In this document: positions 10,634-26,964 of the stretch, in pieces
Layout of the letters: each line of letters starts with the position of its first letter
How positions within the stretch are numbered: the stretch's first letter is position 1
From: Nitrosopumilaceae archaeon AB1(1)
Lineage (GTDB): Archaea; Thermoproteota; Nitrososphaeria; Nitrososphaerales; Nitrosopumilaceae
Direction: 5' to 3'
Assembly (NCBI GenBank): GCA_033471095.1
Contig: CP136752.1
Location: forward strand, 550,195-598,279
DNA: 48,085 nt
The notes under the pieces: model-generated
The model's input: only the letters and a program-made list of their open reading frames with translations
The model's database searches: none
Told to the model about the DNA's origin: nothing
Position numbers and translations under genes: made by a program

Positions 10634-10711
10634 ATACAAAATTAATTAGTTTATCTTATTAAATAGATTGCTATATAATATACTGTTAAAAATAAGGGGC
10701 ATTTGACAGCG

Positions 10712-10781
10712 GTGTTAAATTAAGGTCATGAAAATTAAATTATTATGACTCTTATTCGTATACATGTCCCAAATTTAACAC
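10712..10781. repeat. Inverted repeat upstream of pcn
   Basis: GTGTTAAATT (10712-10721) is the exact complement of AATTTAACAC (10772-10781). With two mismatches the arms extend to about 14 bp. The spacer is 50 bp. It lies between the divergent start regions of the HEPN operon and pcn, about 80 bp before the pcn start, and could be an operator or the boundary of the accessory island. Confidence 0.4.
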
Positions 10782-10828
10782 TAGACTGAAAAGTACCGAG
10801 TTTTGAACAATGTACTCATCTTTTAGAA

Positions 10829-25100: not shown

Positions 25101-25366
25101 ATGTAGATGTATTTGATTTTTTACTAATAGCATTATACCCCGGAGCTGGATTATTAATTATAGAATTAATTAGTAGAGCGGTAAAAATTCCTAATTGGAT
25201 AAAGTTATCTATACAAGGTATTGCAATGCTTGGATTTGCAGTAGCCTATGTTACACTAATTACCGCACACTGGCTTACATCACTAGTACTCGCTGCTCTT
25301 GCTATATCCTTATTTTATCAAGCACGCAGAATGCGTATATTTCCCAATAAAACTGAATTATACTAA
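25088..25366 (+). CDS. Small membrane protein (NADH-quinone-like or hypothetical, 2-3 TM)
   Basis: A 92-residue hydrophobic protein. Predicted membrane segments are FDFLLIALYPGAGLLIIELI (about 9-28), then about 37-60 (LSIQGIAMLGFAVAYVTLIT) and LTSLVLAALAISLFYQA (about 63-79), followed by a basic end ARRMRIFPNKTELY. The start of the protein faintly recalls the H subunit of respiratory complex I, but it is too short to be one. It is co-transcribed with the GINS gene (13-bp overlap) and its end overlaps the converging zinc-finger gene by 4 bp. Function unknown. Confidence 0.7.
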   Translation: MSHLDVDVFDFLLIALYPGAGLLIIELISRAVKIPNWIKLSIQGIAMLGFAVAYVTLITAHWLTSLVLAALAISLFYQARRMRIFPNKTELY

Positions 25367-25581
25367 CGCTTGAATCGATCTAGAAATTTTTTAAAAAATG
25401 ATGACGTATCTTTGCGTACTATACCTTTTTTTCCAAATCGTCCTGCATGTATCTGTGTCAATTTTACACATCTGTGCTCCTCAGGCAATCTATGTTCTGC
25501 ACAAAATGGATCTTTACAATAATTGCATTCAAAAGGCATGTCTGTTTCGTCACCACAATATGCGCACTTTTCTATTTTCAT
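25363..25581 (-). CDS. AN1-type zinc-finger protein
   Basis: A 72-residue protein with the AN1 pattern: Cys6, Cys9 (CAYCGDE), then FECNYCKDPFCAEHRLPEEH with further Cys and His, ending HRC. This gives two zinc sites. The remainder is a basic tail (FFKKFLDRFKR). AN1 proteins in eukaryotes bind ubiquitin-related or proteasomal partners; archaeal roles are unclear. It converges on the small membrane-protein gene. Confidence 0.88.
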   Translation of the reverse strand: MKIEKCAYCGDETDMPFECNYCKDPFCAEHRLPEEHRCVKLTQIHAGRFGKKGIVRKDTSSFFKKFLDRFKR

Positions 25582-25618
25582 TAATAATATCTAGTGTAAT
25601 TCACATAAATCTTATTCT

Positions 25619-25792
25619 ATGAAATACTCTGCTCAAAATGAAGAGGTATTTGATATGGGTGTTAAATTAGAGGCATGGAATTGGCTATTTATGATTTTAA
25701 AGGATCCGAATACATTCGATTGTTTAGTAAAAACAACTTCAGTCTTAGGCCTACGTACAGATGTGTCAGAATTAGGTACAGAACCACTATGA
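25619..25792 (+). CDS. Small hypothetical ORF carrying the left arm of an inverted repeat
   Basis: A 57-residue ORF from ATG 25619 to TGA 25790-25792, starting MKYSAQNEEVFDMGVKLEAW. It contains WLFMILKDPNTFDCLVKTTS, and this stretch is copied in inverted orientation at 26101-26156. There is no known family, and it could be a truncated gene. The presence of a second, shorter copy that keeps the frame of the shared block favours a coding origin. Confidence 0.45.
   Translation: MKYSAQNEEVFDMGVKLEAWNWLFMILKDPNTFDCLVKTTSVLGLRTDVSELGTEPL
25685..25734 (+). repeat. Left arm of an inverted duplication
   Basis: This 50-bp arm pairs with 26101-26156. The 41-bp core (25694-25734) differs from its partner at only two positions. 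The outer 9 bp (CTATTTATG) also match after a 6-bp insertion in the right arm. It lies inside the 57-codon ORF. Confidence 0.8.
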
Positions 25793-25853
25793 TAATCAAA
25801 TTTTAATTCGTCATAAACTCTTTTTTTATATGATAAATTTGTTCATCTTGAAT

Positions 25854-26069
25854 TCATAATAACAATACTTCGTTTTCGTCTACACTTCGAATTCTTTTTA
25901 ATAATGGGGTATATGAGGGGGATTTTTGTATAGCCATATTATATGTCTCAATCATATCGTCACTATTAGCAATTACATTTTTACCTACTATCGCAATCCA
26001 TTTTCCACTATACTTTTTTTTATCTTGTTCGGTCATAGATGACAAATAGATATCTTCTGTACTGGACAT
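25854..26069 (-). CDS. DUF5678-like small protein
   Basis: A 71-residue protein whose core SGKWIAIVGKNVIANSDDMI (about 21-40) followed by a helix and a final strand matches the short DUF5678 type (W-I-A-hydrophobic-x-G-x-x-V-I-A/S). No function is established for the family. It sits between the arms of the inverted duplication. Its start ATG 26069 faces the right arm, which begins 32 bp upstream of it. Confidence 0.75.
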   Translation of the reverse strand: MSSTEDIYLSSMTEQDKKKYSGKWIAIVGKNVIANSDDMIETYNMAIQKSPSYTPLLKRIRSVDENEVLLL

Positions 26070-26100
26070 TGTAAACTATATTCATAACCCTGATATTGAT

Positions 26101-26156
26101 GTTTTTACTAAACAATCGAATGTATTCAAATCCTTTAAAATTCTGCTCATAAATAG
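26101..26156 (-). repeat. Right arm of the inverted duplication, with a 37-codon remnant ORF
   Basis: Near-exact inverse copy of 25685-25734. On the minus strand it encodes, from an ATG near 26198, a 37-residue ORF reading LFMSRILKDLNTFDCLVKTS and ending GL-stop just past the arm. The left copy reads LFMILKDPNTFDCLVKTTS. The 6-bp insertion keeps the frame. This looks like a truncated paralog of the small gene at 25619. Confidence 0.75.
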
Positions 26157-26223
26157 TGAAAAATTTGAGTTGTTAGACAAGGAATCGGAATACATTTTTA
26201 TGATTTTCATTACTAATAATATC

Positions 26224-26964
26224 ATGATAACTGGCAAAGTAGCACTAGTTACCGGTGCTAGTAGTGGTATAGGTTATGCCACTGCCATTGCACTTGCAAA
26301 AGCTGGTGCCAAAGTTGCAATTTGTGCTCGAAGAACAGATAAACTAGCACAATTAGAAGAAGAAATTAAAAAAATTGGTGCAGAGGTATTGGTACAAAAA
26401 GTCGATGTAACTGTAAGATCTGAATGTGAATCTTTTGCAAAGAAAGTTCTTAATGAATGGAACTCTATTGATATTTTAGTAAATAATGCAGGACTCATGC
26501 CTCTGAGTTTTATAAAAAATCTCAAAGTAGATGAATGGGATCAAATGATTGATGTGAATATTAAAGGTGTCTTGTATTGTACGGCAGCAGTTATTTTACA
26601 TATGAAGGAGAAAAAATCCGGTCACATCATTAACATATCCTCTGTTGCGGGACGACTTGTTTTTCCTGCCGGTAGTGTATACTGTGCTACAAAACATGCA
26701 ATTACAGCTTTTAGTGAAGGGTTGCGACAAGAGTTGAGTGCACGCAGTAACATTAGAGTGACATGTATTGAACCTGGAGTTGTAACTACTGAATTAACTA
26801 ATACCATAACCGATGAATCACTACAAACTTTTGTAGAAGGGGCTAAAAAGATGGAATCACTACGAGCAGAAGATATTGCAAATACGATATTATATGCTGC
26901 TCAAGCTCCCAAGCATGTAAATGTAAATGAGATCTTGATACGACCAGTTGAACAAGAACGCTAG
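26224..26964 (+). CDS. Short-chain dehydrogenase/reductase
   Basis: A 246-residue classical SDR using NAD(P)H, from ATG 26224 (MITGKVALVTGASSGIG). The frame is open for 18 codons upstream, but the family N-terminus starts here. Motifs: TGASSGIG cofactor loop (10-17), an Arg-Arg after the second strand (ARRTDK) that favours NADP, NNAG (about 86-89), and the catalytic Ser-Tyr-Lys: ISSVAG, then YCATK. It overlaps the converging zinc protein by 4 bp. The substrate is unknown; this type often acts on 3-oxoacyl or small alcohol substrates. Confidence 0.93.
   Translation: MITGKVALVTGASSGIGYATAIALAKAGAKVAICARRTDKLAQLEEEIKKIGAEVLVQKVDVTVRSECESFAKKVLNEWNSIDILVNNAGLMPLSFIKNLKVDEWDQMIDVNIKGVLYCTAAVILHMKEKKSGHIINISSVAGRLVFPAGSVYCATKHAITAFSEGLRQELSARSNIRVTCIEPGVVTTELTNTITDESLQTFVEGAKKMESLRAEDIANTILYAAQAPKHVNVNEILIRPVEQER

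What the first reader, a model, noticed from the sequence alone, without database searches (positions are those of the whole stretch)
25685..26156. Near-perfect inverted duplication flanking a DUF5678-like gene
Seen: a 41-bp core with two mismatches, inverted, about 370 bp apart. Both copies encode the same peptide block (LKDxNTFDCLVKT) and the only indel is 6 bp, which keeps the frame. Inferred: recent inverted gene duplication, or a MITE-like or invertible segment whose middle is the DUF5678-like gene and its upstream region.
Basis: partly seen in the sequence, partly recalled or inferred. Interest (0 to 1): 0.5.

Follow-up and report, generated by a model that had tools for sequence, protein, structure and literature searches.

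The report
Small inverted copy beside decayed protease
A stretch of about 50 bases has been copied backwards a few hundred bases away, inside a small inserted and partly decayed gene pair of an archaeon; it is genuine, but looks like ordinary genome debris rather than a switch or a mobile element.

Summary
The inverted repeat is real: arms 25685-25735 and 26100-26156, 49 of 51 aligned bases identical plus one 6-nt gap, far beyond shuffles. It sits in a lineage-specific insert: in 24 of 25 relatives' loci the AN1 zinc-finger and SDR genes are divergent neighbours about 63-140 bp apart, here about 640 bp. The insert holds an open DUF5678 gene (26069-25854, minus), then a decayed N-terminal piece of a retropepsin-like protease gene (minus, about 25842-25690), then half of a degraded MITE-like repeat (up to 25680). 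DUF5678 plus protease is a conserved pair in relatives; this genome's only other protease match follows its only other DUF5678 match and is also broken. Arm 2 is best read as an inverted partial copy placed upstream of DUF5678. No third copy of the arms, no target duplication and no tyrosine-recombinase match were found, so the transposon and invertible readings are not supported. Low interest.

The parts
25363..25581 (-). AN1-type zinc-finger gene (left ancestral neighbour)
   Evidence: PF01428, 42.2 bits; same neighbourhood in relatives
25605..25680 (+). Left half of a degraded ~150-bp MITE-like repeat (core similarity 25633-25680); another copy at window 10671-10825 and more elsewhere in the genome
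   Evidence: score 51; 0 of 200 shuffles reach it
25619..25792 (+). 57-aa ORF carrying LKDPNTFDCLVKT; probably not a gene
   Evidence: no Pfam match; no convincing relative; overlaps the repeat and, on the other strand, the protease remnant
25685..25735 (-). Arm 1: inside the protease remnant, reading VFTKQSNVFGSFKIINS on the minus strand
25690..25842 (-). Decayed N-terminal piece of a retropepsin-like aspartyl protease gene directly downstream of DUF5678; no start codon in frame before the match, and cut off before the catalytic motif
   Evidence: best of 1235 six-frame peptides of the window, E 1.6e-4; genome-wide E 0.034; frames
25854..26069 (-). DUF5678 gene, 71 aa, open
   Evidence: PF18929, E 1.2e-8; relatives at E <= 1e-7 in 6 of 249 other family genomes
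26100..26156 (+). Arm 2: inverted copy of arm 1, 31-87 nt upstream of the DUF5678 start; may hold its promoter
26189..26203 (+). SDR promoter-like box, probably retained; the right edge of the insert would lie upstream of it
   Evidence: best SDR-box score in the spacer, 8.9; second best 7.8 at 25972, inside the DUF5678 gene
26224..26964 (+). SDR-family dehydrogenase gene (right ancestral neighbour); start at 26224 by alignment to relatives
   Evidence: PF00106, 213 bits

Best explanation
A DUF5678 + retropepsin-like protease gene pair came to lie on the minus strand in the short spacer between the AN1 zinc-finger and SDR genes of this lineage. The protease gene then decayed: about 45 codons of its N-terminal part remain, without a start codon and cut off where half of a MITE-like repeat now lies. 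A ~50-bp piece of the remnant (arm 1) was copied in inverted orientation to just upstream of DUF5678 (arm 2), by a local illegitimate copying event such as template switching. Shown: the inverted repeat, the lineage-specific insert, the open DUF5678 gene, the repeat half and the conserved pairing in relatives. Supported but modest: the protease remnant. Inferred: arm 1 as parent, the copying mechanism, the order of events, and that the arms have no dedicated function beyond perhaps giving DUF5678 a TATA-like promoter.
For: The AN1-SDR spacer is about 63-140 bp in 24 of 25 relatives' loci with both genes, here about 640 bp. In 14 of 15 other family genomes with a protease match, DUF5678 lies within 150 nt upstream on the same strand. 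In this genome the protease profile has two matches at E <= 10, and each directly follows one of the two DUF5678 matches. The profile alignment runs RRPKTEV|VFTKQSN across the inner border of arm 1; shuffled arm peptides reach the real score in 4 of 500 cases, whereas the plus-strand peptide of arm 2 scores 0.7 bits. Repeat half: 0 of 200 shuffles reach its score. No third copy of the arms.
Against: The remnant match is weak in a whole-genome search (13.4 bits, E 0.034), did not pass E 0.01 in the family search, and covers about 40 of 172 profile positions. The outer third of arm 1 (FGSFKIINS) has no clear counterpart in the protease. Arm 2 is 6 nt longer than arm 1, so the direction of copying rests on the inner junction alone. 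The AN1 promoter box is only weakly matched at its expected place. No second strain was available to see the state before duplication.
Confidence: 0.68

Rival explanations
1. The arms are terminal inverted repeats of a ~470-bp non-autonomous mobile element carrying DUF5678.
For: Near-perfect inverted arms round a gene inside a lineage-specific insert; MITE-like repeats exist in the genome.
Against: No target duplication at the outer arm borders beyond 4-nt chance matches; no third copy in the genome; in 249 family relatives one 31-nt hit, inside another gene (at most 3 candidates per genome were scored there); eight DUF5678-protease loci of relatives have no comparable inverted repeat (best score 36 against 77); no significant match between the MITE-like repeat and the arms.
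Confidence: 0.1
2. Invertible segment: recombination between the arms flips 25736-26099. As arm 2 lies just upstream of DUF5678 facing inwards and arm 1 is its mirror image, DUF5678 would keep nearly the same upstream sequence in both orientations.
For: Inverted arms with 28 nt of unbroken identity, both facing inwards.
Against: No PF00589 tyrosine-recombinase match at E <= 0.01 in the genome, while the control rings in 14 of 14 genomes; serine recombinases not tested; arms short for homologous recombination; the protease remnant joined to DUF5678 fits the order of the gene pair in relatives.
Confidence: 0.06
3. Arm 2 is the parent (an original DUF5678 upstream region) and arm 1 is the copy, fused by chance into the protease remnant.
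For: Arm 2 holds TATA-like words, the nearer 38 nt from the DUF5678 start; arm 2 has the longer form.
Against: Protease similarity appears to continue into arm 1 (4 of 500 shuffles); the TATA-like scores are modest (6.8, against 5.2 and less at other sites).
Confidence: 0.15

Closest known systems
DUF5678 (PF18929) gene next to a clan AA retropepsin-like protease gene in related archaea
   Same: DUF5678 open and homologous (48% to G006); remnant of the protease in the expected place, strand and order
   Different: Protease reduced to about 45 N-terminal codons without a start; an inverted copy of part of it lies upstream of DUF5678
MITEs (miniature inverted-repeat transposable elements)
   Same: A short repeat family with imperfect terminal inverted repeats is present and half a copy abuts arm 1
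   Different: The finding's arms do not match it, are not dispersed and have no target duplication
Short intrachromosomal inverted duplications / templated insertions (recalled, no paper consulted)
   Same: Single short near-identical inverted copy a few hundred bp from its source
   Different: Nothing in particular; the mechanism is not testable here

Membership tests
DUF5678 (PF18929) | Profile match above the curated cut-off | tested here: met
   35.1 bits against 23.2
Retropepsin-like aspartyl protease (relatives' downstream gene) | DSGA catalytic motif and an Asp_protease profile match | tested here: inconclusive
   DSGAD invariant in six relatives; one relative scanned: PF13650 22.3 bits, just under its cut-off of 24.3
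Retropepsin-like aspartyl protease (window remnant) | Catalytic DSG motif present | tested here: not met
   The remnant ends before it: a remnant, not a protease; no Pfam match
MITE / TIR element (the 25685-26156 segment) | Terminal inverted repeats | tested here: met
MITE / TIR element (the 25685-26156 segment) | Target-site duplication | tested here: not met
MITE / TIR element (the 25685-26156 segment) | Several dispersed copies | tested here: not met
Site-specific invertible segment | Cognate recombinase in the genome | tested here: inconclusive
   No PF00589 match; serine recombinases not tested
Site-specific invertible segment | Both orientations in reads or strains | not testable with these tools
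   One genome in the genus, no reads
MITE-like ~150-bp repeat family (25605-25680 as a half copy) | Several copies with inverted ends | tested here: met
   4 fuller copies, one more diverged copy and one distant relative in the own genome; the inverted ends are imperfect and clearest in the distant relative; target duplications not tested

The most novel reading that the evidence does not exclude
DUF5678 is the small partner (inhibitor, adaptor or antitoxin-like) of the retropepsin-like protease encoded next to it, and outlives it when the protease decays; here it lost its partner twice in one genome, and the inverted copy of a piece of the dead protease gene now serves as its promoter.
Probability: 0.1. 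Interest if true: 0.5.

Novelty: new member of a known kind. Interest (0 to 1): 0.17.

Why it matters
As a finding it is mostly a correction: a suggestive inverted repeat is explained as a local duplication in a decaying, lineage-specific gene pair. The by-product is a conserved DUF5678-aspartyl protease pair in archaea, seen also in two bacterial candidate-phylum records, which gives a testable partner to a family of unknown function.

Tried and rejected
Weak DNA matches of the arms or the repeat in relatives: those in G092, G041 (two) and G044 were looked at with their ORFs and lie in, or at the end of, unrelated coding genes; those in G018, G019 and G023 were printed but their genes were not examined, and the G010 hit was not looked at. 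Exact arm patterns gave nothing in genome contigs or viral contigs (the own genome or near ones may be left out there). In viral contigs 51 stretches matched a protease pattern but none encodes a relative at E <= 1e-3. No Rfam match up to E 1 in 25300-26400. A MITE end on the right side of arm 2 was suspected by eye and rejected (130 of 200 shuffles reach the score). A match of 26078-26095 to the repeat was not significant (36 of 200). A reading of arm 2 as the protease C-terminus was considered and dropped (0.7 bits). Papers: DUF5678 (1 paper, off topic), MITE + Thaumarchaeota + insertion sequence (0), miniature inverted-repeat + archaea + Nitrosopumilus (0), retropepsin + archaea + aspartic protease (7); of these I saw the listing and the starts of abstracts only, and opened none.

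Full report
Observation. The inverted repeat is present as described. Arms of 42 nt (25694-25735, 26100-26141) are 95% complementary with 364 nt between them, and a gapped alignment extends them to 25685-25735 and 26100-26156 with one 6-nt gap. The local self-complementarity score is 77 against at most 46 in 200 shuffles. In the own genome (one contig, 1,455,463 bases) the arms have no third copy; six further rows of 14-19 nt have E 0.58 or worse. In 250 genomes of the family including the own one, one other match at E <= 0.001 was found, 31 nt in G092 (at most three candidates scored per genome), and it lies inside an unrelated coding gene.

The insert. In relatives the AN1 zinc-finger gene (25581-25363 here) and the SDR gene (from 26224) are divergent neighbours. 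One search found the AN1 protein in 51 of 61 genomes and returned 30 loci, one of them the own. Of the 29 others, 25 hold the SDR gene within the locus; 24 of these 25 have about 63-140 bp between the starts and one GC-rich genome has 372 (starts are set by alignment and approximate). Here it is about 640 bp. The SDR promoter-like box of relatives is best matched at 26189-26203, 21 nt before the SDR start (score 8.9; a second site inside the DUF5678 gene scores 7.8). The AN1 box is only weakly matched near its gene (25599 and 25614), the best AN1-box scores lying in the arms. So about 530 bp, holding everything in the finding, is specific to this genome among those compared; its exact edges are not fixed.

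What was inserted. DUF5678 (26069-25854, minus) is a real family member. Relatives at E <= 1e-7 were found in 6 of 249 other family genomes, each followed by a protein of 169-179 aa with an invariant DSGAD motif; the one scanned is weakly matched by Pfam Asp_protease_2, just under its cut-off. A search with that protein family found 15 other family genomes with a match at E <= 0.01; in 14 of these DUF5678 lies within 150 nt upstream on the same strand, the exception being G080. Of twelve genome-contig loci, six carry the same gene pairs as the family loci (judged from identical scores and spacing). Of the other six, three (L110, L113, L115, from Kaiserbacteria, Woesearchaeota and Taylorbacteria records) have a DUF5678 match 13-114 nt upstream and three (L111, L112, L114) do not.

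The protease remnant. In the window, the minus-strand frame 25842-25636, which opens about 12 nt after the DUF5678 stop codon, is the best of 1235 six-frame peptides against the protease profile (E 2.7e-4 with six sequences; 1.6e-4 with nine). It has a stop just before it and no ATG, GTG or TTG in frame ahead of the match, so it has lost its start as well as everything after about 45 codons. In the whole own genome the profile has two matches at E <= 10: one at 1407757-1407897 (E 0.0017) and this one (E 0.034). The own genome has two DUF5678 matches at E <= 1e-3, and each protease match lies directly behind one of them; the one at 1407 kb is broken by frame changes and a stop. The score in the window is low, but the place is the predicted one. 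Without the arm and what follows, the peptide scores 9.4 bits; the full peptide scores 17.4; with the arm part shuffled the mean is 10.4 and 4 of 500 reach 17.4. So arm 1 is most likely protease coding sequence on the minus strand, and the plus-strand peptide LKDxNTFDCLVKT is most likely not real: the 57-aa ORF has no Pfam match and only two marginal hits, in one other genome.

The repeat beside arm 1. 25605-25680 (core 25633-25680) resembles a ~150-bp repeat with imperfect inverted ends: fuller copies at 740.7, 744.4, 560.9 and 1347.1 kb, a more diverged one at 533.8 kb, and a distant relative at 707.8 kb. The similarity covers only the left half (0 of 200 shuffles reach it); no significant similarity was found in the arms or the right flank. 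In 60 other genomes only short matches in five genomes at E 0.002-0.005 were seen; the three of these matches that were examined with their ORFs lie in or at the end of unrelated genes.

Mechanism. The simplest course is gain of the pair, loss of most of the protease together with invasion by the repeat, and an inverted copy of ~50 bp of the remnant to the upstream side of DUF5678; the order of these steps is not shown. The inner border of arm 1 falls inside the protease similarity and that of arm 2 does not, which makes arm 1 the likelier parent. Arm 2 then lies 31-87 nt upstream of DUF5678 and contains TATA-like words, so it may be part of its promoter; this is a guess. There is no target duplication, no comparable inverted repeat round eight related gene pairs, and no tyrosine-recombinase match in the genome while the control search rang in 14 of 14 genomes.

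Verdict. Real, and best explained as an ordinary local inverted duplication inside a lineage-specific, decaying gene pair. The conserved DUF5678-protease pair is the more interesting by-product; two searches of the held library turned up no listing that is evidently about it, and that library covers only part of the literature.

Noticed in passing
L037, L075-L079, L082-L095, L110, L113, L115: DUF5678 is followed by a retropepsin-like aspartyl protease gene in 14 of 15 other family genomes that have the protease, and in three of six more distant loci including two bacterial candidate-phylum records: a conserved two-gene module of unknown function.
   Followed up: partly
L097 1221-1614 (own genome 1407.5-1407.9 kb): A second DUF5678 gene in the same genome, also followed by a broken protease gene.
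   Followed up: partly
window 10671-10825; L012 1510-1690; L024, L027, L028: A dispersed ~150-bp MITE-like repeat with imperfect inverted ends, one copy directly upstream of a PCNA-like gene (name by recall); no long match in 60 relatives.
   Followed up: partly
L030 around 1400-1560 (own genome 707.8 kb): A related ~140-bp element with longer, cleaner inverted ends (ATTATACACTGTTCCAAACTCGGCGCTTT), apparently a sister repeat; by eye another diverged copy may lie at L012 1190-1330.
   Followed up: no
L092, L098, L102 (G167): Protease matches split over three pieces behind an open DUF5678 frame: the protease may decay while DUF5678 stays in other genomes too, though assembly errors are not excluded.
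   Followed up: no
L076 1786-2700 (minus strand): An ORF that looks like a tyrosine integrase lies just upstream of the DUF5678-protease pair in G226 (read by eye, not scanned).
   Followed up: no
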